A stretch of 64,000 nt of DNA from positions 13,421,898 to 13,485,897 of the forward strand of contig OY811972.1 in assembly GCA_963681505.1 (NCBI GenBank). Reading direction: 5' to 3'. Both the position numbers and the translations under genes were made by a program. Of this stretch, positions 13,641 to 51,964 are shown one piece after another (the stretch's first letter is position 1; each line of letters opens with the position of its first letter). The notes below the pieces were generated by a model, which saw nothing but the letters and a program-made list of their open reading frames with translations, had not been told where the DNA came from and ran no database searches. The DNA is from Eunapius fragilis. Its lineage: Eukaryota; Porifera; Demospongiae; Spongillida; Spongillidae.

Positions 13641-13883
13641 AGCAAAATTCAGGCAAGATTTATATTATTCATAATGTTATGGCTTATCAGTGGGGGTTAA
13701 TGACTACATGCTTGTAAGTGAGGCATAGTCAGATTCATGCTACTGCACGAATTCAGTGCAGCAGTCCGCAAGACGGATGCGAGCAAGTCTCCAGACTGAT
13801 AGTATAGTAGTACAACCGTCAGTCTAGTAGACTCCCTTCTTAATTGTATATTAATTAGAGTACACGGTATCATTTTTATCATA

Positions 13884-13891
13884 TTACGTAA
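13884..13891 (+). promoter_or_regulatory. TTACGTAA box upstream of receptor 1
   Basis: A perfect 8-bp palindrome 30 bp before the ATG. The surrounding attacgtaacgtta.ttaacacgcg is conserved before the other receptor copies. TTACGTAA is the known consensus for PAR-bZIP/C/EBP-type factors; use as such here is inference. Confidence 0.45.
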
Positions 13892-13920
13892 CGTTATTTA
13901 ACACGCGTGGTAGGGAACTG

Positions 13921-14883
13921 ATGGCAGCGACTGACAATATTTCCAACTGCTCGTCGCCTACAGTGGAGGAGGAGAAGATCGTGTTCGTCTTATTCTCCAC
14001 CTTTGCAGGGATTGCTATCTTCTTCTACGTCACATCCATCCTCGTGATAGTCAAGACCCGTACGTACCGGCTCTTCCTTCACCGCCTGACCCTCTACCTC
14101 GCCTTTAGCGGCATATTGCTTTCGCTGACCCTGGTACTCCAAATACTGCCAGTGGATTTAAATCAGAACACTATAAAAGTTAGGGTGGGTTTAGAGAACT
14201 TGTGTGTATTCGCAGGTTTTCTGCGCCAGTATATGGTCTTCCTCCAAGCGCTCACTGTGGTGTGGATCTGTTTCTACATCTTTCAGCTAGTCGTGCGGGA
14301 GAGACAGCTCAAGAAGTTGAAGTACGAGCTGATCGGAGTTGTTACGGTCGTCCTGGTTCCGTTCCTGTTCACCTGGGAACCGTTCATCACCAACTCGTAC
14401 GGCCTGCGCGAAACTCGGTGTTGGATAATTGATGATGACTGCTTCGACCCCTACGATATCGCCTTCGTGTACCAGATGGCCATCAACTTGATACCCAGTT
14501 TCTCGCTGACGATCCTGAGCTTAATTCTGATATGTTTTGCCTTGGTTTCAGTGACGAAGAAAACGATCGGAAGGAATTTGCAGCGCCACCACTGGTTGGC
14601 GATAAAGGAGATACTCCCCCTGACTATGTTCCCTTCCGTGTACCTTGCAATCGGTTTGGGGAGGATAGTCGCTATGGTTTCCGGCAAATTTTCTTACGAC
14701 GTAGCTGATGCCTTCTTGGTTCTGGAACAGGCGAACTCCTTTGCAGTCCCGTTATCCCTTCTGGTACGTCTCAGTATACGTGAAAGGCTGTGCCGGGGCG
14801 TCCCAAACAAAGTAACAGAAATGGAGGCACTTCCGTCAACTATAGTCACAATCGATGCAAACATCGTAAACCAGCCCGTGTAA
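13921..14883 (+). CDS. Seven-transmembrane receptor, intronless, 320 aa (receptor 1)
   Basis: Single-exon frame with seven hydrophobic segments at about residues 20-44, 55-77, 95-125, 137-155, 180-211, 229-252 and 261-284. The short N-terminus has NIS and NCS glycosylation sequons. C95 at the top of TM3 and C167/C174 in the second extracellular loop could form the usual receptor disulfide. The third inner loop is short and basic (TKKTIGRNLQRHH). There is no DRY after TM3 (LVVRER instead) and no NPxxY in TM7, so class A membership is uncertain; it belongs to a local, lineage-expanded family also found at 16.1, 20.7, 22.3, 24.0 and 38.8 kb. The start is supported by conservation of MAA(T/A)(D/N)N in all copies. 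Ligand and G protein are unknown. A possible polyadenylation signal follows at 15100. Confidence 0.85.
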   Translation: MAATDNISNCSSPTVEEEKIVFVLFSTFAGIAIFFYVTSILVIVKTRTYRLFLHRLTLYLAFSGILLSLTLVLQILPVDLNQNTIKVRVGLENLCVFAGFLRQYMVFLQALTVVWICFYIFQLVVRERQLKKLKYELIGVVTVVLVPFLFTWEPFITNSYGLRETRCWIIDDDCFDPYDIAFVYQMAINLIPSFSLTILSLILICFALVSVTKKTIGRNLQRHHWLAIKEILPLTMFPSVYLAIGLGRIVAMVSGKFSYDVADAFLVLEQANSFAVPLSLLVRLSIRERLCRGVPNKVTEMEALPSTIVTIDANIVNQPV

Positions 14884-20614: not shown

Positions 20615-20654
20615 CATTACATAACACGCGCGGTGCCGGCGACTGTGCATAGAG

Positions 20655-21068
20655 ATGGCAGCGGCTAACAATACTTCCAACTGCTTGTCGCCTACAGTGG
20701 AGGAGGAGAAGATCGTGTTCGTCTTATTCTCCACCTTTGCAGGAATTGCTATCTTCTTCTACGTCACATCCATCCTCGTGATAGTCAAGACCCGTACGTA
20801 CCGCCTCTTTGTTCACCGCCTAACCCTCTACCTCGCCTTTAGCGGCATATTGCTTTCGCTGACCCTGGTACTCGAAATACTGCCAGTGGATTTAAATCAG
20901 AACCGCGCTAAGGTTAAAGCGGGTTTGGAGAACTTGTGTGTATTCGCAGGTTTCCTGCGCCAGTATATGGTCTTCCTCCAAGCGCTCACTGTGGTGTGGA
21001 TCTGTTTCTACATCTTTCAGCTAGTCGTGCGGGAGAGTCAGCTCAAACAACTGAAGTACGAGCTATGA
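20655..21068 (+). pseudogene. Truncated receptor, 137 aa, TM1-TM3 only (receptor 2)
   Basis: Identical to the first 137 residues of the full receptor at 23955, ending KYEL followed at once by TGA where a ~230-bp repeat begins. It keeps the glycosylated N-terminus, TM1-TM3 and the second inner loop but loses TM4-TM7. Most likely a pseudogene; if transcribed, a 3-TM product might interfere with full-length receptors (speculative). Confidence 0.85.
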
Positions 21069-21300: not shown

Positions 21301-22307
21301 TATATATATAGTTCTTTTCTACCTCAGGACTTCTAAAGGCTTATCCGACTAACCTTAATAAGTTGCCCCTTCAAATCCTTTCATCTCTTTGGTGCTTTGT
21401 CAGACGCTTTGATCAAAGTTAGCTGCCTCAGAAGCAAGCGTCTTTGCGCACTCTCACTTACTAAGCCACATACCAGTCTATCACGCAATGCTTCCTCACA
21501 CCCTCTTCGCCAATTGTCGTGTCTTTGCCGATGCTGGAAAATCCTCTCTCTAACCCCGCGGCGGGTGACCGTAACTTGTTGATAACTGATGCGCAAGCGC
21601 ATGCTGATATTACAGTCTCCTTCACGGGCAATTAGAAGTATTGCCAGCCGTCCCTATGCACAGCCATGCACCGGCCGACACCAAGCGTGTTATGTAATGC
21701 TAAATCATTACAAGCTGGATATTTCGTTATGAGCTGGCTATATATATATGGCCTGTCATCAAAGCCGTCTTTCCTATTGTACTGCTCAGGTGGGGTACAA
21801 TAATGGCACATTATACCTCTGCATGGTTTCTCGTCCAAACATACTGGTTCGATAAGGCAACTGTAGAGATGGTAATAGTGGATCCTAGTCATGTTCCACC
21901 TCCTGCGCGGAACTGCCATTATACTCAACATCTCTAGATCTAACCAGTCCTATTAAATCGTTCAACAAATCCATCAGATTGGCCATGGGGTCGTTCGTAC
22001 CAAGCAATTAACAGATCGACACCTAGACAATTTCCTGTGGGAGGTGCAAGTTCAAAAATACAACTTACTATCCACTTAGTTTACACTAATATCTATGGTC
22101 TACTTACCTAGGAATTCTAGGATGAACACAACCCACTCCGCGACGACGCTTTCTTGAAGAATAGTCTATCCGGCGTCCTTTCTGAAAAAGAGGATAATTG
22201 ATAATGCATTTTGGCATGTGCCTATGTCATTACGAAACATTACTTAATAGCGTAGCCTATTACGTAACATTACATAACACGCGCGGTGCCGGCGACTGTG
22301 CATAGAG

Positions 22308-22721
22308 ATGGCAGCGGCTAACAATACTTCCAACTGCTTGTCGCCTACAGTGGAGGAGGAGAAGATCGTGTTCGTCTTATTCTCCACCTTTGCAGGAATT
22401 GCTATCTTCTTCTACGTCACATCCATCCTCGTGATAGTCAAGACCCGTACGTACCGCCTCTTTGTTCACCGCCTAACCCTCTACCTCGCCTTTAGCGGCA
22501 TATTGCTTTCGCTGACCCTGGTACTCGAAATACTGCCAGTGGATTTAAATCAGAACCGCGCTAAGGTTAAAGCGGGTTTGGAGAACTTGTGTGTATTCGC
22601 AGGTTTCCTGCGCCAGTATATGGTCTTCCTCCAAGCGCTCACTGTGGTGTGGATCTGTTTCTACATCTTTCAGCTAGTCGTGCGGGAGAGTCAGCTCAAA
22701 CAACTGAAGTACGAGCTATGA
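22308..22721 (+). pseudogene. Truncated receptor, 137 aa (receptor 3)
   Basis: Second tandem copy with the same predicted protein as receptor 2 and the same TGA junction to the family C repeat at 22720. The shared breakpoint shows that receptors 2 and 3 descend from one already interrupted copy. Confidence 0.85.
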
Positions 22722-23954
22722 CGGGTTTGAACCCCAAGGGGTATCAGACGTTGTAACACTGGCACGAAGCTAATGCAAGAGCCCATAATCGATTTTACCA
22801 GAGGGAAATGATGTAGTATGAAGTGTTGAAAATAGGAAGTCAATAGCATTTACGGTACGGGAGATGTAGCGATTTCGAAGTGAATCATTTTTATAACTTT
22901 ATATATATATATGCGATAGGCAATTTTCGCGTGAACTGTCCCATATATATATATATATATATAGTTCTTTTCTACCTCAGGACTTCTAAAGGCTTATCCG
23001 ACTAACCTTAATAAGTTGCCCCTTCAAATCCTTTCATCTCTTTGGTGCTTTGTCAGACGCTTTGATCAAAGTTAGCTGCCTCAGAAGCAAGCGTCTTTGC
23101 GCACTCTCACTTACTAAGCCACATACCAGTCTATCACGCAATGCTTCCTCACACCCTCTTCGCCAATTGTCGTGTCTTTGCCGATGCTGGAAAATCCTCT
23201 CTCTAACCCCGCGGCGGGTGACCGTAACTTGTTGATAACTGATGCGCAAGCGCATGCTGATATTACAGTCTCCTTCACGGGCAATTAGAAGTATTGCCAG
23301 CCGTCCCTATGCACAGCCATGCACCGGCCGACACCAAGCGTGTTATGTAATGCTAAATCATTACAAGCTGGATATTTCGTTATGAGCTGGCTATATATAT
23401 ATGGCCTGTCATCAAAGCCGTCTTTCCTATTGTACTGCTCAGGTGGGGTACAATAATGGCACATTATACCTCTGCATGGTTTCTCGTCCAAACATACTGG
23501 TTCGATAAGGCAACTGTAGACATGGTAATAGTGGATCCTAGTCATGTTCCACCTCCTGCGCGGAACTGCCATTATACTCAACAATGTCTCTAGATCTAAC
23601 CAGTCATATTAAATCGTTCAACAAATCCATCAGATTGGCCATGGGGTCGTTCGTACCAAGCAATTAACAGATCGACACCTAGACAATTTCCTGTGGGAGG
23701 TGCAAGTTCAAAATTACAACTAGCTCTCCACTTAGTTTACACTAATATCTATGGTCTACTTACCTAGGAATTCTAGGATGAACACAACCCACTCCGCGAC
23801 GACGCTTTCTTGAAGAATAGTCTATCCGGCGTCCTTTCTGATAATTGATAATGCATTTTGGCATGTGCCTATGTCATTACGAAACATTACTTAATAGCGT
23901 AGCCTATTACGTAACATTACATAATACGCGCGGTGCCGGCGACTGTGCATAGAG

Positions 23955-24908
23955 ATGGCAGCGGCTAACAATACTTCCAACTGCTTGTCGCCTACAGTGG
24001 AGGAGGAGAAGATCGTGTTCGTCTTATTCTCCACCTTTGCAGGGATTGCTATCTTCTTCTACGTCACATCCATCCTCGTGATAGTCAAGACCCGTACGTA
24101 CCGCCTCTTTGTTCACCGCCTAACCCTCTACCTCGCCTTTAGCGGCATATTGCTTTCGCTGACCCTGGTACTCGAAATACTGCCAGTGGATTTAAATCAG
24201 AACCGCGCTAAGGTTAAAGCGGGTTTGGAGAACTTGTGTGTATTCGCAGGTTTCCTGCGCCAGTATATGGTCTTCCTCCAAGCGCTCACTGTGGTGTGGA
24301 TCTGTTTCTACATCTTTCAGCTAGTCGTGCGGGAGAGTCAGCTCAAACAACTGAAGTACGAGCTGATCGGAGTTATTACGGTCGTCCTGGTTCCGTTCCT
24401 GTTCACCTGGGAACCGTTCATCACCAACTCGTACGGCCTGCGCGAGACTCGGTGTTGGATAATTGATGACAACTGCTTCGACCCCTACGATATCGCCTTC
24501 GTGTACGTGTTGGCCATCAACTTGATACCCAGTCTATTGTTGACGATCCTGAGCTTAGTTCTGATATGTGTTGCCTTGGTATCATTGACGAAGAAAACGA
24601 TCGGAAGGAATTTGCAACGCCACCACTGGTTGGCGATAAAGGAGATACTCCCCCTGACTATATTCCCTTCCGTGTACCTTGCAATCGTTTTGGGGAGGAT
24701 AGTCGCTGTGCTTTCCGGCAAATTTTCTTACGACGTAGCTGATGCCTTCTTGGTTCTGGAACAGGCGAGTTCCTTTGCAGTCCCGTTATCTCTTCTGGTG
24801 CGTGTCAATGTACGCCGAAGGTTATGCCGATACCGACAAGGCGAAGCAGGGGAAATGGAGCCATTTACAACAACTACAATGAAAGGGGATTACGAAAACA
24901 AGAACTAA
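23955..24908 (+). CDS. Seven-transmembrane receptor, intronless, 317 aa (receptor 4)
   Basis: Full-length paralogue of receptor 1, colinear through all seven hydrophobic segments, with the TM3 cysteine, the CWIIDDNC second-loop cysteines and the basic TKKTIGRNLQRHH third loop retained. The N-terminus has an NTS sequon. The C-terminal tail differs from receptor 1 (RRRLCRYRQGEAGEMEPF) and ends about 33 residues after TM7. It is the intact third unit of the tandem triplication, with a TTACGTAA box 41 bp upstream. Ligand unknown. Confidence 0.85.
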   Translation: MAAANNTSNCLSPTVEEEKIVFVLFSTFAGIAIFFYVTSILVIVKTRTYRLFVHRLTLYLAFSGILLSLTLVLEILPVDLNQNRAKVKAGLENLCVFAGFLRQYMVFLQALTVVWICFYIFQLVVRESQLKQLKYELIGVITVVLVPFLFTWEPFITNSYGLRETRCWIIDDNCFDPYDIAFVYVLAINLIPSLLLTILSLVLICVALVSLTKKTIGRNLQRHHWLAIKEILPLTIFPSVYLAIVLGRIVAVLSGKFSYDVADAFLVLEQASSFAVPLSLLVRVNVRRRLCRYRQGEAGEMEPFTTTTMKGDYENKN

Positions 24909-31770: not shown

Positions 31771-33776
31771 CTTCCTGCTGAACGGGACACTCAAATACCA
31801 TGGTGAAACGTTCAAAGATGTAGACCCCGATTTTGTTTACGAGTTCTCTAGATCGTTATATGTTGATGATTTTGTCTCCGGAGCTGATGAGCTTGATGAA
31901 CTCTATGATTTGTACAAAAAGTGTAAACTGCAGCTCAAGGCAGGTGGCTTCAACATGAGGAAGTTAACATGCAGCTCCCCCACTCTACAACAGAGAATAG
32001 ATCACCAGGAGCATCTCCAACCGAAGGAGCAACTGCAAACTACTGAAGAAGACCAGTCATACACCCACTCTACGCTTGGAGGACAAACAGTGTGAACGGG
32101 AAGCACAGAAGGTTTTGGGTGTCCAATGGCCTCCTACAGACAATCATTTTGTCTTTGATATCAGTCTGTTTGGTCAACTAGCAAGGGAATTGCGACCAAC
32201 CAGAAGATATATAGTTGGCCTTGTAGCTCGCTTCTATGATCCCTTAGGGGTAATCTCCCCAGTAATAGTTAAACTGAAGATCTTTGTACAAGAATTATGT
32301 GGAGCCAAGTTGTCATGGGACGAAATGATTACTGGGTCATTGTTTATGAAATGGAGGAATTTGGTTTCAGATCTCCAGATAACGGAACCACTTGGAATAC
32401 CAAGATGTTACTTGTTGCAGCCATGTGTACCTTAGAGGGTTTCTGTGATGTGTCTTCATTGGCGTATGGTGCCATTGTCTATTTGCGTATTCAAACACCA
32501 ATGGATATTGCTGTACTCTCTGTCACTGCGAAGACACGAGTTGCACCTTTGCACAACAAAACCATTCCTCGACTTGAGCTGCTAGCAGCTCTGCAATCCT
32601 ACCTGAAATGTCGCTACAGGGTATAAGGACAGTCCCTATTATTCTGACTCCATGGTGTCACTCTTTTGGATAAAAGGTGTAAGTCATGAGTGGAAGCAGT
32701 TCATCCAAAACGGGGTCGAGACAATCAGGGAGTTGGTGCCAGGAGATTTCTGGAGCTATTGTCCTGGAGGCTGCAATCCTGCTGACATCCCTTCCAGAGG
32801 AACAAATATACTTGAACTGAAAGAGTCATTGCTGTGGTTGAATGGTCCCATATGGCTACATGGCAGCATTAGCATGATAGGCACTAGTATGATGACATCA
32901 CCATTCCAGAGGTTTGTCTACCAGATATGAAATTGTCACGTGAAAATGGATCTATCATAACACACTCTTTCATGGCAAGTCTATGTGATGAAGAAGGCAG
33001 CATAATACCATGTGAAGATTTTAGCACACTCAGAAGGTTGCTGAGAGTAACCTCTCTTGTAATACAATTCATTGACAACCTCAAAATGAAGAGAGCTCCA
33101 TCAGCACGTGGAGAAGGAGGAGGTTGCATTATAAGGGCCAAGAAGTATTGGATTAAGGTTTCACAAGGGGCACTACAGCAAAAAAAGCATTTTACATTGT
33201 GGAAATTGCAGTTTTCTTTGTTTCTAGATGAAGACGGAATTTGGAGATGTAAGGGACGACTAGCAAATGTGGGTTTACCCACCTGCACAACATTCCCTAT
33301 ACTATTGGACACCAGCAGCCATATCACACATCTGATTGCAATGGCATGTCATGAGCGCATTCTGCATGGAGGTGTAAAGGACACCTTGACCGAACTTAGG
33401 TCCAAGTATTGGGTAGTCAAAGGAAGAAGTTTTGTGAAGAAATTACTCCGAGGATGCATTGTATGCCACAGATTTCAAGGAAAACCATTTCCGTCCCCGG
33501 TGTCACCCTCATTACCTGCATTCAGAGTACAGGAATCTCCACCCTTCTCTTACACTGGAGTGGATTTTGCTGGACCACTCTTTGTGAAGTCAGGTGAGAA
33601 TAAGGTACGGATCTGTCTGTTCACATGCTGTTCACGCAGAGTGGTGCACTTGGAGGTAGTTCCAAATTTATAACAGCAGAAGCATTCATTAGGTGTTTTA
33701 GAAGGTTCATAGCAAGGCGTGGAATTCCACGCAGAATCATTTCTGACAATGGGAAAACGTTTAAGGCTGCTACTAG
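31771..33776 (+). pseudogene. Inverted BEL/Pao pol segment: RT (YVDD), RNase H, integrase HHCC and core
   Basis: In order on plus: RSLYVDDFVSGADELDE (RT catalytic box), FNMRKL, KVLGVQWPP, ARFYDPLGVISPV (about 32.2 kb), a KTRVAPL.N.TIPRLELLAA segment (RNase H region, 32.5 kb), NPADIPSRG (32.8 kb), then a long frame 32927-33673 with the CHERILHGGVKDTL..C.VCHR zinc motif and DFAGPLF (first catalytic Asp), and in another frame PRRIISDNGKTFKAA (second Asp). Frameshifts are near 32.08, 32.41, 32.62 and 33.67 kb. Confidence 0.85.
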
Positions 33777-37915: not shown

Positions 37916-38845
37916 TTACATATGAGTTGATGTAAATGGCTCCCTTTCCTCTGCTTCGCTTCCACGGCATCGGCATAGGCTTCGGCGCACATTGACACGC
38001 ACGAGAAGGGATAACGGAACTGCAAAGGAGCTCGTCTGCTCCAGAACCATAAAAACATCAGCTACGTCGTAGGAAAATTTGCCGGAAAACACAGCGACTA
38101 TCCTTCCTAAAATGATTGCAAGGTACACGGAAGGGAATATAGTCAGGGGGAGTATCTCCTTTATCGCCAACCAATGGTGGCGCTGCAAGTTCCTTCCGAT
38201 CGTTTTCTTCGTCACTGTAACCAAAGCAATGCATATCAGAATTAAGCCCAGGATCGTCAGCAAGAGAATGGGTATCAAGTTGATGGCCAACGTGTACACG
38301 AAGGCGATATCGTAGGGGTCGAAGCAGTCATCATCAATTATCCAACACCGAGTCTCGCGCAGGCCGTACGAGTTGGTGATGAACGGTTCCCAGGTGAACA
38401 GGAACGGAACCAGGACGACCGTAACAACTCCGATCAGCTCGTACTTCAACTTCTTGAGCTGACTCTCCCGCACGACTAGCTGAAAGATGTAGAAACAGAT
38501 CCACACCACAGTGAGCGCGTGGAGGAAGACCATATACTGGCGCAGAAAACCTGCGAAGACACACAATTTCTCCAAACCCACCCTAACTTTTATAGTGTTC
38601 TGATTTAAATCCACTGGCAGTATTTGGAGTATCGGGGTCAGCGAAAGCAATATGCCGCTAAAGGCGAGGTACAGGGTCAGGCGGTGAACGAAGCGACGGT
38701 ACGTACGGGTCTTGACTATCACGATGATGGATGCGACGTAGAAGAAAACAGCAATCCCTGCAAAGGTGGAGAATAAGACGAACACGATCTTCTCCTCCTC
38801 CACTGTAGGCAACGAGCAGTTGGAAGTATTGTTAGCCGCTGCCAT
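37916..38845 (-). CDS. Seven-transmembrane receptor, intronless, 309 aa (receptor 5)
   Basis: Full-length, inverted member of the receptor family. The ATG at 38845 gives the conserved MAAANN start; the frame extends four codons further but only to a GTG. Seven hydrophobic segments, NTS and NCS sequons, the TM3 cysteine (EKLCVFAG), the CWIIDDDC loop and the TKKTIGRNLQRHH third loop are all present. The C-terminal tail (RRSLCRCRGSEAEEREPF) is closer to receptor 4 than to receptor 1. A TTAC(A)TAA box lies 18-25 bp upstream. No disabling change seen. Ligand unknown. Confidence 0.85.
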   Translation of the reverse strand: MAAANNTSNCSLPTVEEEKIVFVLFSTFAGIAVFFYVASIIVIVKTRTYRRFVHRLTLYLAFSGILLSLTPILQILPVDLNQNTIKVRVGLEKLCVFAGFLRQYMVFLHALTVVWICFYIFQLVVRESQLKKLKYELIGVVTVVLVPFLFTWEPFITNSYGLRETRCWIIDDDCFDPYDIAFVYTLAINLIPILLLTILGLILICIALVTVTKKTIGRNLQRHHWLAIKEILPLTIFPSVYLAIILGRIVAVFSGKFSYDVADVFMVLEQTSSFAVPLSLLVRVNVRRSLCRCRGSEAEEREPFTSTHM

Positions 38846-38862
38846 CTCTTTGTGCACAATTA

Positions 38863-38870
38863 TTATGTAA
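38863..38870 (-). promoter_or_regulatory. TTACATAA box upstream of receptor 5
   Basis: Variant of the TTACGTAA palindrome at a position similar to that in the other receptor genes. Confidence 0.35.
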
Positions 38871-38879
38871 CTTTATATC

Positions 38880-46214: not shown

Positions 46215-46666
46215 TGTATTTTAACTGATTAATATTTTGAACGTAGGTTTGCTTTGGGTGTTGGTAGACTGTAAAGAAGTTGATGGATTCCCTGCCGGGG
46301 ATGGAAGCAGTTGCCTCGCCAACACTGTGGAAAACAGGATGTCGACTTACTTTGAGGTGGCGCAAGCCAAAGCATGGTGCGTCTCTATGCGGTACAGTTT
46401 GTGCTGACATTGGCTTATGCACATGGAAACTTCGTCAAAATAGGGACACGTATCCGATGGTTTGTTCTTTTTTTTTCTTTTTGTTCCTCCATGTAATGCA
46501 ATCCTTAACTGAGCTAGTGCAACCTGATATGAAGGTATTTTGTATATTAGCACTAGCATACAAGTCAGTATAGACCCTTTTCCAGCGTGGGCGTATCATG
46601 TGACATGATTCCTCGTGCCCGGACAATTTTTCTCGTACCCCAACCACGTGTAGGCACAAGCTAAGG

Positions 46667-48665
46667 ATGGAGTCGTCTTACTTGAGCTCTCTTGATTATT
46701 CAGCGCGAAGACGGTACCTTTTGAAGCTGCAGATCGATGGTGAAGTGTTTCCGACCCCTATTGCATTGATGAGAAGGAATGGGTTAATGACGTTACTACC
46801 TGGCCAGATTTACAGTTTGGAGACATTTATACTTATCTCATTGATACGAAGGGAACATACACACAAGAAACTTTGAAAGCTTACAAGTCACTTGAAGCAT
46901 ACAACTATTTTTACAACGGCTATGTTCAAACAGTTTTGTCGTATGAACTTAACTGATACGCGTGTCTTAAGGCAAAGGTAAACCCAAGTCAGAAGGCACC
47001 AGACCATGGCTACGAAGCATGGGTTATTTTGTCCCAAAAAAATGTCTCCGTAATAACAGCACATTGTAAATGCATGGCGGGGTAAGTTCATAGTACTTTG
47101 GATGTACTTGCCACAACTCATGTGCTGTTTCCTTCCCAATGCATTTAATTTTGTGCAGATTAGGTGAAGTGTGCAGCCATGTTGCTGCTTTATTGCCGGT
47201 TTAAAATTGAAGCTGCTTGCAAATTGGGGTATAATAAACCATCGTGTACCTCACTTCCTTGTGAGTGGAATAAGTCATTTGTGGACAATGTAAGCAGCAA
47301 CATGTATAAAAGATTAGTTTCATACAATTATATGGTTCTTCCTGCATGCAGGTAGATCCTTCTGAAGTGATGGACATTCACTTTGTGCAACCTGTTCATA
47401 CAGGTTTGGGGGAAAATTCATCAAAAGATGTTAATGCATTGTCATTGAAGATGAGTAGTGAATTTGCAACTGGTCCTCATGAAAGCCCTCATATAAAGAC
47501 AGATATCTTATTAAGTACAATTCACAAAGTTGCTCCAAATTCAAGTCTATTCACAATTGTATCCTTCCCTTAATTCAGTAGCAGTTGAATGTACCTCTAG
47601 AGCTGAGGCAATGTCTCCTGCTATTGCTGCTGTTACAGCAACTAGGTATGATCAAAGCATCATTCCACTATCTTGTCTTCCTTCACCATTGACAGCACTG
47701 TATGATGAAAAGTATAAATGCTTAAATAGTGAGCAGTTACTTAAGAAGGCTAGAGAAGTTTTTCAAGGCATAACAATATCTGAGAGCACATGCAAAATTA
47801 TTGAGTTGCAGACATGCAAACAAAGAGAATGCAGGGAGTGGCATGAGCAACGTAAAGGGCGGATTACTGCATCTTCATTCCATGAAATTCTTGTCTTCAA
47901 AAGTAATGGCAATCCACAAAATATAATTAGAGCACTACTTGTAGAGAAAGACTTGAGTTTTGTTCCTGCTATTAAGTGGGGTATTGAACATGAGGAGACT
48001 GCGAAGCAACAGTATATAATTTAAATGCAACAGTCACATGAAGGATTAAATATGATCTTGCTGGGTTTGTAATAAATCCCCTTTACCCGCATTTAGGTGC
48101 AAGCCCTGATGGCTTTATAGAATGTAAATGCTGTGGAAGAGGGTTATTAGAGGTGAAATGCCCACTGTCGTACAAAGACATTAATCCTCAAGAACTAAAA
48201 TTGATGAAGCTTTCATGTATTGGTGACAGTGAGCTTAAAAAAACACACAAGTACTATACACAAGTGCAGGGACAACTTGGGATATGTAGTAGCAGGAACT
48301 TTTGTGACTTTGAAGTCTGGACTCAGAAAGGTATATATGTGGAAAGGATATACAAGAACCTTCCATTTGTAGAACAGCTTGTTAAGAAGCTGACCACATT
48401 CTATGTTGAGTGTTTGCTGCCAGAAATTATGACTCATAACATTTTGGATGCTGAGTGTTCTAAGAACCCCCAGAATTCAGAAACCCTGCAGCCTGCACAA
48501 AGCATTTCGGATACATACTGCTTTTGTAAAAAGAAAGAATATGGAAAAATGATCCAGTGTGACAATCCAAGTTGCAAATTTGTTTGGTTTCATTATGCCT
48601 GTGTAGGAATCAAAAGAGCTCCTAAAGGAAATTGGTACTGTTTTGAATGTCAGCTAATGAAATGA
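46667..48665 (+). pseudogene. SWIM zinc finger - YqaJ nuclease - PHD finger protein of the transposon
   Basis: ATG at 46667 opens MESSYLSSLDYSARRRYLLK; after a +1 shift near 46752 the frame runs WVNDVTTWPDL..YTQETLKAYKSLEAYNYF. A SWIM finger CKCMAG/LGEVCSH is split by an intron (47082-47158), and a second intron is at 47290-47351. After a shift near 47555 comes the YqaJ PD-(D/E)XK exonuclease domain: EWHEQRKGRITASSF, GIEHEETAKQQY, and, past a shift and TGA near 48020-48040, GASPDGFIECKC and GLLEVKCP with the catalytic Asp and ExK. The C-terminus is an ING-type PHD finger. YqaJ nucleases trim DNA ends; in this transposon the role in transposition is inferred. Three frame breaks make this copy inactive as it stands. 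Confidence 0.8.
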
Positions 48666-48763
48666 CATGCATACATGTACATGTACATATAGGACTATAC
48701 CCAAGTGCATGAAATATTTGATGCATAAAGCAGTTGTATTGTATTCACAATATTTGATGAATG

Positions 48764-50169
48764 TCATTGGACCAAGGGAGGATTAAGGTTACATAAGGCA
48801 GCACATACAATAAGAATCTTGTCAATTGTTGAAAAATGGGTATCCTTAGATGTTTTAATCATAGAAACAGGTAGTCTCAACTGAAGACGCTTGAAGTGTT
48901 TCAACCTTCCTATTGCTCGCTCAACATGAATTCGCACTCGAGATAATGACCTACTGACTTCAACTTCATTTTGGGATAACTGATCTTTACCTTTGGTAAA
49001 GGAAGGCAAGGCAAGAGAAGCCCCATGCAAAGCCAAATCATCAGCAATGTTAAAGCCTCTGCCGGCTAGTACTAGATCTCCCGGGATAAGGTAGTTATAA
49101 AAACCACAGTTGGCTGTCAAATACTTATCTGAAACTCGTCCACCCCAACACTTAGATAAGAAAATTATTGCTCCTGTTGGACTGATAGCCATCAAAATCT
49201 TTACAGTATTGTGATGTTTGTATTGAGAATATGTCTGAGCTCTAGCCAGCAATGAGGATGGTCGCTCCAGAAATATTTCTGAGCAATCTATTATACAAGT
49301 AGCATGAGAATACATAGGCTTGAAGCAATCAGGCAGTGTTCATCGAATTTTTGTTCGATCTGGCCAACATATCAGATGATGAAGTTCTCTAGACATAACA
49401 TCTATCCAACAATGAAATATTTTACTAACTGAAGAAACAGCAATTCTAAATCGATAAGATAAGTCTTCGTGAGGCATTGCTAGTCGCAATTTTATACAAA
49501 CCAAAAGCAATTCATCCCCATGTGACAGCTTGCAAGTATCATTATTCATAGCCATTAATGGATTCAAAAGAGTCAAAATTGTCTCCAACACTTTGTAGGA
49601 ACGGAGTGAGGTATAGAAGTGTGTTTGGGAATCATCACCTTTAAGCATTTCAAATGGGCTTGATGTGGAGAGAAACCTACTATCCATTCCTGCATCAGTA
49701 TTTATGGCTTTCTCTTCTACTTGCACATCCTGTGTAAAATGCCTGTGCTCTGCACATTCTATAAAAACACTGCTGTGCTCACTCTCTTCTTGGACATATC
49801 TCCTGCAGTAGCAGTGGTCTTCTTGTGTGTTAACACCTTTGTCCTTAAGTTCTACATCTGTGTTCATAGCCTCATCTTTCATTTGTATCTCTGTATTCAC
49901 CCCCTTGTCTTCACATTGAATACCTTCAAATTCTATCCTTTCTTCTTCATGGCAGTACATATCATCATCATCTAAAGTATTATACGACGATGATGAAACA
50001 AGTTTTTCAGTGCATGCTATGTTAATAATAGCTATTAAAAGCAACTCTGAGAGCACTCACCAGATACTTGAGTTGTGGCATCTTTCTGGTCTCTCTCCTC
50101 AATAGACGAGCTCAGACTCATAGAGCGTGGACGCTTATAGCAGCGGCCAACTTGGAATCTTCGTGGCAT
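48764..50169 (-). pseudogene. HARBI1/ISL2EU-type DDE transposase with one stop and a lost catalytic Asp
   Basis: A first exon (ATG 50167-50169, MPRRFQVGRCYKRPRS, donor near 50068) is joined by a short intron to the long frame from about 50019. That frame has acidic repeats (EDKGVNTEIQMKDEAMNTD), then a helix-turn-helix (LLLVCIKLRLAMPHEDLSYRF..SVSKIFHCW) of the HTH_Tnp_4 type. After one in-frame TGA (49340-49342) the DDE core follows: IDCSEIFLERPSS with Asp 1, SPTGAIIFLSKCWGGRVSDK, GDLVLAGRGF where Asp 2 (usually ADRGF) is Gly, and HVERAIGRLK with the Glu. The HTH binds DNA and the core cuts and joins it. An upstream MSDDTCCVSVGC frame (50541) could be a THAP remnant. Confidence 0.8.
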
Positions 50170-51069
50170 GGCTGCATAATCATGTAAGGGCAAACTGTGA
50201 AACTTAGTTGCATCAACACAACATCATGTGAATGTAATTTATATCTATTAACACCCGCCAAGCACCTATGTGTACTTCGTTTGTTTGGTTTACGTCCTTC
50301 TTGTTCAGTGTCTGGACCAGAGGGATTACAGCCAAAGCCATCCAATTGCACACACTTGATTAGTTAATAGAGGATGTACAAAAGGCTGAAGCAAAATGTA
50401 TCCATTAACACCCACGATATGGCGAAGAATTTTTAGGCATCGTTTTTCACAGATAATAACTTTACCATGGATCGCCAAAGGGATTACAAGATTGTTTTCA
50501 AAATAGCAACCTACGCTTACGCAGCAAGTATCATCGCTCATAATCAGTCGATGGAAACAATGAGTACCAACCTTGCGTTAAAGTTTCGTACCGTAGAGTT
50601 GACCGTAGCTTGCTCTAGAACAATTCACAGCTTTCAACCTTCAGAAACACATGTAGTCACGTGAGCGTGCGTGTGATAATTAAAGTATTCATGTCCATTG
50701 GAAAAGGGTCTATATTTAAATTAATAATTAGGGGGCATGTAACAGATTTTAACTGAAGAGATTCTGTCGACTATGAAATCAATGTGATCATATTCATAAT
50801 AGCCAATTTCTGTAGTGGCGATTAGTCAATATTGGCTTCTGCATAGCCTGGAAAAAAAAATTTTTGTTACCTGCATGTACCTTTAAATTAGCCGATCCTT
50901 GGTTTATTAACGGGTAAAGTTTGGGGGTGGGGCTGGGGAGTTTCTTTTAAATCGTGTGGTAATTAACCCCAGCCAGGTTTTCATTGATTCCATCTGATGG
51001 TTAGAAATGCGCATGCAACAGTACGAATTTCCCTCTCTGTGTGAATGGGGTACAAGTACTGTAGAGCAT

Positions 51070-51492: not shown

Positions 51493-51964
51493 TCCCTAGT
51501 ATTAACATGCACACGTACAGCCAACGAAAAACAAAGATGCGCACACACGAGGCGCTCTCGTTTCTAACAAAGACATCAAAGACGGCGCATCATAAAGAAC
51601 GCAGCTGCTGTCTGTCAGACAGCATGATNNNNNNNNNNNNNNNNNNNNNNNNNNNNNNNNNNNNNNNNNNNNNNNNNNNNNNNNNNNNNNNNNNNNNNNN
51701 NNNNNNNNNNNNNNNNNNNNNNNNNNNNNNNNNNNNNNNNNNNNNNNNNNNNNNNNNNNNNNNNNNNNNNNNNNNNNNNNNNNNNNNNNNNNNNNNNNNN
51801 NNNNNNNNNNNNNNNNNNNNNNNNNNNNTCCCTAGTATTAACATGCACACGTACAGCCAACGAAAAACAAAGATGCGCACACACGAGGCGCTCTCGTTTC
51901 TAACAAAGACATCAAAGACGGCGCATCATAAAGAACGCAGCTGCTGTCTGTCAGACAGCATGAT
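51493..51964. other. 200-N assembly gap with identical 136-bp flanks
   Basis: 51629-51828 are N. Bases 51493-51628 and 51829-51964 are the same 136-bp sequence, starting tccctagtattaacatgc and ending cagacagcatgat. This is what unmerged overlapping contig ends look like; a genuine tandem repeat is less likely. Confidence 0.9.

What the first reader, a model, noticed from the sequence alone, without database searches (positions are those of the whole stretch)
46569..50714. Nearly whole ISL2EU-like transposon with convergent nuclease and transposase genes
Exact 16-bp inverted ends bracket a SWIM-YqaJ-PHD gene and a HTH-DDE gene and nothing else. The layout matches what is known of ISL2EU elements, and few mutations separate this copy from an active one, so intact relatives may exist in the genome.
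Basis: partly seen in the sequence, partly recalled or inferred. Interest (0 to 1): 0.7.

Follow-up and report, generated by a model that had tools for sequence, protein, structure and literature searches.

The report
Jumping gene with nuclease-histone-reader protein
This is a dead copy of a recently mobile ISL2EU-type DNA transposon in an animal-like genome; its second protein joins a DNA-cutting domain to a histone-reading finger of the ING type, which may let the element sense active chromatin.

Summary
Confirmed and extended. Window 46569-50714 is one copy of a young ISL2EU family. The genome holds 8 near-full-length copies, 96.3-99.5% alike. An empty site shows a 2-bp AT target duplication. 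The window copy is dead: both genes are frame-broken and the second DDE aspartate is glycine. One of 8 aligned copies keeps both frames open.

The layout recurs genome-wide: 90 of 118 YqaJ hits lie within 5 kb of a listed DDE_Tnp_4 hit, all 90 convergent, against 0.85 expected. Both genes show purifying selection between this and a sister family.

The new point is the finger ending the nuclease protein. It is ING/Yng1-type (E 2.5e-19), follows 84 of 118 YqaJ hits, and keeps the H3K4me3-cage positions in most of 18 loci I chose. I propose it tethers the nuclease to active chromatin, as the RAG2 PHD does; binding is untested. This family also lacks the usual THAP domain and prefers T|AT|A over the published A|AT|T. 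New variant of a known kind.

The parts
46570..46571 (.). left copy of the AT target-site duplication
   Evidence: paralogous empty sites of a sister copy (L007) carry a single AT at the same position; coordinates
46572..46584 (+). left terminal inverted repeat, 13 bp
46667..47081 (+). gene 1 exon 1 (N-terminal region and first half of a SWIM-like CxC..CxH motif); frame broken in this copy
   Evidence: exon model from copy L002; GT/AG sites kept in 8 of 8 aligned copies; coordinates
47082..47158 (+). gene 1 intron 1, inferred (77 nt)
   Evidence: no transcript data
47159..47289 (+). gene 1 exon 2 (second half of the SWIM-like motif)
47290..47351 (+). gene 1 intron 2, inferred (62 nt)
   Evidence: no transcript data
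47352..48665 (+). gene 1 exon 3 (YqaJ nuclease and PHD finger); frame broken in this copy
47836..48284 (+). YqaJ / viral alkaline exonuclease-like nuclease domain, split by a frame change here
   Evidence: Pfam; 1.9e-18 in copy L002; PDB exonuclease 3syy E 1.9e-6
48519..48650 (+). C-terminal PHD finger of ING/Yng1 type
   Evidence: Pfam PHD 1.6e-5; phmmer to Yng1 2.5e-19 with copy L002
48764..49971 (-). gene 2 main exon (HTH and DDE transposase), interrupted by an in-frame stop at 49340-49342
48788..49291 (-). DDE_Tnp_4 catalytic domain; second acidic residue is G in this copy
   Evidence: Pfam 1.5e-46
49388..49534 (-). HTH_Tnp_4 DNA-binding domain
   Evidence: Pfam 5.1e-13
49972..50060 (-). 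gene 2 intron, inferred (89 nt here, 67 nt in L002-L006)
   Evidence: no transcript data
50061..50169 (-). gene 2 first coding exon as inferred (basic N-terminus); no THAP domain
50699..50711 (-). right terminal inverted repeat, 13 bp
50712..50713 (.). right copy of the AT target-site duplication

Best explanation
The feature is a non-functional copy of a young family (here 'family A') of ISL2EU cut-and-paste DNA transposons. SHOWN BY SEQUENCE: 13-bp inverted ends; 2-bp AT duplication; convergent genes for an HTH-DDE transposase and a three-exon YqaJ-nuclease protein ending in an ING-type PHD finger; recent spread (mean 0.94% divergence among six copies); purifying selection on both genes between two families. 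INFERRED: the DDE protein binds and cuts the ends and inserts the element at an AT, preferably in TATA. The YqaJ protein is an accessory alkaline-exonuclease-type enzyme that trims or resects the DNA ends left by excision or insertion. Its PHD finger binds H3K4me3 and so holds the transposition or repair complex on active chromatin.
For: Copies and ends. Empty site with single AT: 40 of 41 rows span the L007 junction; the two read (L062, L063) agree exactly across it; MITE L047 has one at 89%. Domains. Purifying selection, family A vs B: pN/pS 0.25 (gene 1 exon 1), 0.43 (exon 3), 0.25 (transposase core), third codon positions most changed. Layout: 90 of 118 YqaJ hits paired, all convergent, 0.85 expected. 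PHD: 84 of 118 YqaJ hits have one downstream. Four of four queries from four families return 20 ING/Yng/Pho23/Png2-type sequences before any other PHD. Among 18 YqaJ-linked PHDs that I chose: aromatic before CxC 16, Met 16, Asp 17, Trp 18. ING4 Y198, the residue before the first CxC by my recalled ING4 numbering, is a stated cage residue (PMC8123807 passages). Young copies.
Against: No activity, expression or binding data. TIR starts AG, not the usual GG; no THAP found in 9 of 9 near-full-length family A copies; flank preference T|AT|A instead of A|AT|T. Three left ends (family A L003; family B L072, L074) read ATA|AGACC and could mean a 3-bp duplication there. 34 of 118 YqaJ hits have no listed finger and 28 of 118 no listed DDE hit nearby. 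Two of 18 fingers have Ile at the aromatic position, two have Leu for Met, one has Glu for Asp. The 18 come from a search with the family A finger itself, so they lean towards it, and at least four pairs look like the same family. The genome counts include degenerate and same-family copies, so they are not independent families; DDE, PHD and THAP lists were capped at 150 scored places.
Confidence: 0.7

Rival explanations
1. Same ISL2EU transposon, but the PHD finger is not a histone-mark reader: it serves nuclease folding, DNA or transposase binding, or nuclear retention.
For: No binding data; families differ in the loop after the CxC, and two of 18 fingers have Ile at the aromatic position.
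Against: Similarity is specific to the ING subfamily, not PHDs in general: ING-type sequences at 1e-10 to 1e-19, against a best of 2.7e-4, 1.5e-8, 1.2e-6 and 2e-7 for the next PHD class. Cage-type positions are mostly kept while the rest diverges.
Confidence: 0.28
2. The element belongs to another PHIS group (Pangu with ANT, or Harbinger with TWA duplications) rather than ISL2EU.
For: TIR starts AG, as PMC4482050 reports for Pangu; three ends could be read as 3-bp ATA duplications.
Against: The empty site of L007 has one AT; the second gene is YqaJ, not Myb/SANT.
Confidence: 0.07
3. The two genes lie together by chance: two nested elements, or a host nuclease gene next to a transposase.
For: 28 of 118 YqaJ hits have no listed DDE hit within 5 kb.
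Against: All 8 near-full-length copies align over both genes between the same ends; 90 of 90 paired loci are convergent with a median gap of 538 bp.
Confidence: 0.01
4. Same transposon, but the YqaJ gene is not needed for transposition and instead supports the element by other means, for example DNA repair or recombination among copies, or countering host silencing.
For: Function of the second ORF is called unknown in PMC4482050 (passages); gene 1 exon 3 is under weaker constraint than the transposase core.
Against: It is found beside the transposase at many loci, which suggests, but does not prove, a shared task.
Confidence: 0.3

Closest known systems
ISL2EU group of PHIS transposons (Han et al. 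2015, PMC4482050; abstract and passages seen)
   Same: AT target duplication, DDE + HTH transposase, second ORF with YqaJ domain, about 4.1 kb against a reported mean of about 4.8 kb, short TIRs
   Different: TIR starts AG not GG; T|AT|A flanks not A|AT|T; no THAP in family A; ING-type PHD on the YqaJ protein and strict convergence, neither mentioned in the passages seen
ING / Yng1 family PHD fingers (H3K4me3 readers)
   Same: finger with the CDNxxC..WFHxxC..PKGxWYC pattern; cage-type positions kept; E 2.5e-19
   Different: sits on a transposon nuclease, not in an acetyltransferase or deacetylase complex subunit; binding untested
RAG2 PHD of the RAG recombinase (PMC8355894, passages seen)
   Same: accessory protein of a DDE-type transposon-derived system carrying an H3K4me3-type PHD
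   Different: RAG2's core is a beta-propeller, not a nuclease; works like it at most, no homology claimed
Lambda-type / viral alkaline exonucleases (YqaJ family)
   Same: nuclease domain; PDB exonuclease 3syy E 1.9e-6; 23 viral-contig loci at 25-33% identity
   Different: the listed viral matches end by query residue 228 of 277, before the PHD

Membership tests
ISL2EU | 5'-AT-3' dinucleotide target duplication (groups are defined by TSD in PMC4482050) | tested here: met
   empty site of L007 with single AT; three ends in other copies remain ambiguous
ISL2EU | PHIS-type DDE transposase with HTH | tested here: met
   DDE_Tnp_4 1e-45 and HTH_Tnp_4 9.8e-14 in copy L002
ISL2EU | second ORF with YqaJ exonuclease domain ('most' families) | tested here: met
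   YqaJ 1.9e-18 in copy L002
ISL2EU | THAP domain in transposase ('most' families; not defining) | tested here: not met
   absent in 9 of 9 near-full-length family A copies (one search lists a tenth locus, C16:3806668, which is only a left-half fragment and cannot count); 48 of 118 YqaJ loci have one among the best 150 THAP hits; sister L061 has it at 1.6e-13
ISL2EU | target flanks A|AT|T (described, not defining) | tested here: not met
   11 of 17 sites T|AT|A, 1 of 17 A|AT|T; full-length family A copies 6 of 10 T|AT|A against 10% background
ISL2EU | TIR usually begins GG (described, not defining) | tested here: not met
   begins AGACCC
ISL2EU | transposase clusters with named ISL2EU families in a tree | not testable with these tools
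   no named eukaryotic transposon library on hand
PIF/Harbinger | TWA 3-bp TSD and Myb/SANT second ORF | tested here: not met
   AT empty site; no Myb/SANT hit
Spy | no TSD, single ORF | tested here: not met
Pangu | ANT 3-bp TSD | tested here: not met
   L007 empty site
ING-type PHD finger | sequence closer to ING/Yng than to other PHDs of solved structure | tested here: met
   4 of 4 queries
ING-type PHD finger | H3K4me3 cage positions (aromatic, Met, Trp) and H3R2-binding Asp | tested here: met
   present in families A and B; 16, 16, 18 and 17 of 18 chosen loci. Positions other than the ING4 Y198 statement are recalled
ING-type PHD finger | binding to H3K4me3 | not testable with these tools
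   needs a peptide assay
SWIM domain | CxCx(n)CxH zinc motif recognised by the family profile | tested here: inconclusive
   motif present in L002; no Pfam SWIM hit at E<=1

The most novel reading that the evidence does not exclude
Many ISL2EU families encode a transposon-borne chromatin reader: an ING-family H3K4me3-binding PHD finger fused to a lambda-type exonuclease. The element thus couples DNA-end processing, or target choice, to active promoters, which would be an independent counterpart of the RAG2 PHD and a first functional handle on the unexplained second gene of ISL2EU.
Probability: 0.4. Interest if true: 0.7.

Novelty: new variant of a known kind. Interest (0 to 1): 0.5.

Why it matters
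The role of the YqaJ gene in ISL2EU is described as unknown (PMC4482050, passages), and ISL2EU activity as unproven as of 2022 (PMC9179366, passages). This genome offers many YqaJ-DDE loci, some very young, and shows that the nuclease usually carries an ING-type finger with the methyl-lysine cage positions mostly kept. That turns 'what does the second gene do?' into two simple tests: peptide binding, and excision with and without the nuclease. If the finger reads H3K4me3, two unrelated transposon lineages would have acquired the same chromatin-sensing device.

Tried and rejected
Rejected: two independent nested elements; Harbinger, Spy or Pangu membership; a hidden THAP in family A, since neither of two alternative 5' ORFs gave a Pfam THAP hit.

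Led nowhere: Rfam and tRNA scans of the window (none). Silicatein-type pattern to identify the host as a demosponge (none; pattern recalled, so not informative). PDB sequence search with the transposase: no hit at E<=1. Single-sequence AlphaFold of the window DDE piece: pLDDT 34.8, discarded. PHD pN/pS across 190 pairs: below 1 in 188 of the 188 pairs with pS >= 0.05, but mostly near synonymous saturation and therefore weak. First alignment of copies was spoiled by the reversed L004 and was replaced.

Rows dropped: L097 and L098 (PHD-like, no YqaJ, different zinc spacing) were left out of the 18-finger count, and the 18 were chosen by me from the 150 places. Of 152 DDE matches only the 150 listed were used. 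Family B sites L072/L073 and L074/L075 and the imperfect-ended MITE L056 were left out of the 17-site table. The MITE sites there come from a search pattern that included the flanking T, so the unbiased figure is the 10 full-length copies. In one search one of the ten family A loci is a fragment without the transposase, so I count nine.
Full report
WHAT IS THERE. The exact inverted pair is at 46569-46584 and 50699-50714 and is not chance (0.06 expected in the window). Between the ends lie two convergent genes: + strand YqaJ nuclease and PHD finger, - strand HTH_Tnp_4 and DDE_Tnp_4. That genome holds 8 near-full-length copies, plus two more in pieces on C16 and C5, and many fragments. After alignment the 8 copies are 96.3-99.5% identical. 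Six young copies differ by 0.94% on average (range 0.54-1.31%), so the family moved recently.

ENDS AND TARGET. Copies have unrelated flanks right up to ATAGACCC...GGGTCTAT. Joined flanks of copy L007 with a single AT match 40 places across the junction (40 of 41 rows, 88-99% identity); the two read (L062, L063) agree exactly across it. MITE L047 also has an empty counterpart (L064, 89%). So the duplication is AT, the inverted repeat is the 13-bp AGACCCTTTTCCA, and the element proper is 46572-50711, 4,140 bp. In 17 sites the pattern is T|AT|A in 11 and A|AT|T in 1. In the 10 full-length family A copies, which were not selected by flank, 6 are T|AT|A against a 10% background, P = 1.7e-4. Three left ends (L003, L072, L074) carry ATA|AGACC, which may be a 3-bp duplication or an end variant; unresolved. 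Related short non-autonomous elements (seven read, 115-327 bp) share about 15-29 bp of end sequence with families A and B and then diverge.

GENE 1. In copy L002 three exons (introns 77 and 62 nt, GT-AG in 8 of 8 copies) give an open 617-aa protein. It is open end to end in 1 of 8 copies. It has a CxC-x7-CxH SWIM-like motif (motif only), YqaJ at 1.9e-18, PDB exonuclease 3syy at 1.9e-6, and a C-terminal PHD. In the window copy it is frame-broken with an early stop.

GENE 2. A basic first exon, an inferred intron (67 nt in L002-L006, 86-89 nt in L008 and L001) and a main exon give 436-439 aa, open in 3 of 8 copies, L002, L003 and L004. L002 lacks residues near the C-terminus that L003 has. The window copy has a stop between HTH and DDE, and glycine in place of the second acidic residue of the (recalled) DDE motif.

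BOTH GENES BELONG TO THE ELEMENT. Between families A and B, pN/pS is 0.25 for gene 1 exon 1, 0.43 for exon 3, 0.34 for YqaJ, 0.37 for PHD, 0.25 for the transposase core and 0.14 for DDE; synonymous sites are near saturation, so dN/dS values are rough. Genome-wide, 90 of 118 YqaJ hits have a listed DDE_Tnp_4 hit within 5 kb, all 90 convergent, against 0.85 expected; conversely 96 of 150 listed DDE hits have a YqaJ hit that near.

THE PHD FINGER. Searching solved structures with the L002 protein, the best 20 sequences are all ING, Yng, Pho23 or Png2 fingers (2.5e-19 to 3.5e-13); the next PHD class is at 2.7e-4. Fingers of three other families also return 20 ING-type sequences first, with the next class at 1.5e-8, 1.2e-6 and 2e-7. 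62 of the 150 finger hits have no YqaJ hit within 5 kb. Of 18 YqaJ-linked fingers that I chose and read, 16 have an aromatic residue before the first CxC, 16 the Met, 17 the Asp and 18 the Trp of the ING methyl-lysine site; families A and B have all four. The search used the family A finger, so this sample leans towards it, and some of the 18 are of the same family. PMC8123807 (passages) states that ING PHDs bind H3K4me3 and that ING4 Y198 is a cage residue; the other positions are recalled. Among 23 viral YqaJ relatives no listed match extends into the finger.

HOW IT LIKELY WORKS. Shown: anatomy, AT duplication, recent spread, constraint, ING-type finger. Inferred: the transposase cuts at the 13-bp ends and inserts at AT; the nuclease processes DNA ends; the finger tethers it to H3K4me3 chromatin. 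The last step is the least certain.

WHAT IS KNOWN. In PMC4482050 (abstract and passages) ISL2EU has AT duplications, mostly a DDE/HTH/THAP transposase and a YqaJ ORF of unknown function. PMC9179366 (passages) reports no proof of ISL2EU activity to its authors' knowledge. PMC12730594 (passages) groups ISL2EU with Spy. RAG2's PHD binds H3K4me3 (PMC8355894 passages). I found no paper describing a PHD on the ISL2EU YqaJ protein; the searches were made, in open-licence papers only, and most listed papers were seen only as titles and abstract starts. Database annotation of YqaJ-PHD proteins may exist; I recall such entries but did not check.

VERDICT. It is a new ISL2EU family and a variant in three respects: no THAP, T|AT|A preference, and an ING-type finger on the nuclease. 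The finger is shared by many YqaJ loci of this genome.

Noticed in passing
13855-14880, 20625-21065, 22278-22718, 23925-24905 (+), 37919-38872 (-): Cluster of ORFs that read like intronless seven-helix receptors (my reading), with near-identical N-termini; no Pfam hit at 1e-3 for the three long ones tested.
   Followed up: partly
32001-33670: Fragments of a Pao/BEL-type retrotransposon (Peptidase_A17 7e-18, Integrase_H2C2 2.8e-8).
   Followed up: no
51629-51828: A run of 200 N in the window, about 900 bp right of the element.
   Followed up: no
L061 (C9:4559295-4563664) with L065-L068: The family B element's left flank matches one repeat and its right flank another, each with AT at the junction, as if two insertions had recombined.
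   Followed up: partly
L072-L075, L003: Left ends read ATA|AGACC and right ends GGGTCT|ATA: a possible 3-bp duplication or end variant.
   Followed up: partly
G000 C1:24946558, C2:15898450, C6:268909, C9:2707527 and others: Another YqaJ family: 8 places of near-identical score, 6 with an open frame of 630 aa, several beside DDE hits; probably a second recently active ISL2EU family.
   Followed up: no
50326-50577 (-): An ORF of 70-71 aa starting MSDDTCC near where THAP sits in family B; that length in 6 of 8 family A copies, longer in L003, cut short in L008; no Pfam match.
   Followed up: partly
L031, L047, L056, L060, L069-L071: Short non-autonomous elements with CCATTGTGGGCG ends, perhaps mobilised by a third subfamily.
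   Followed up: partly
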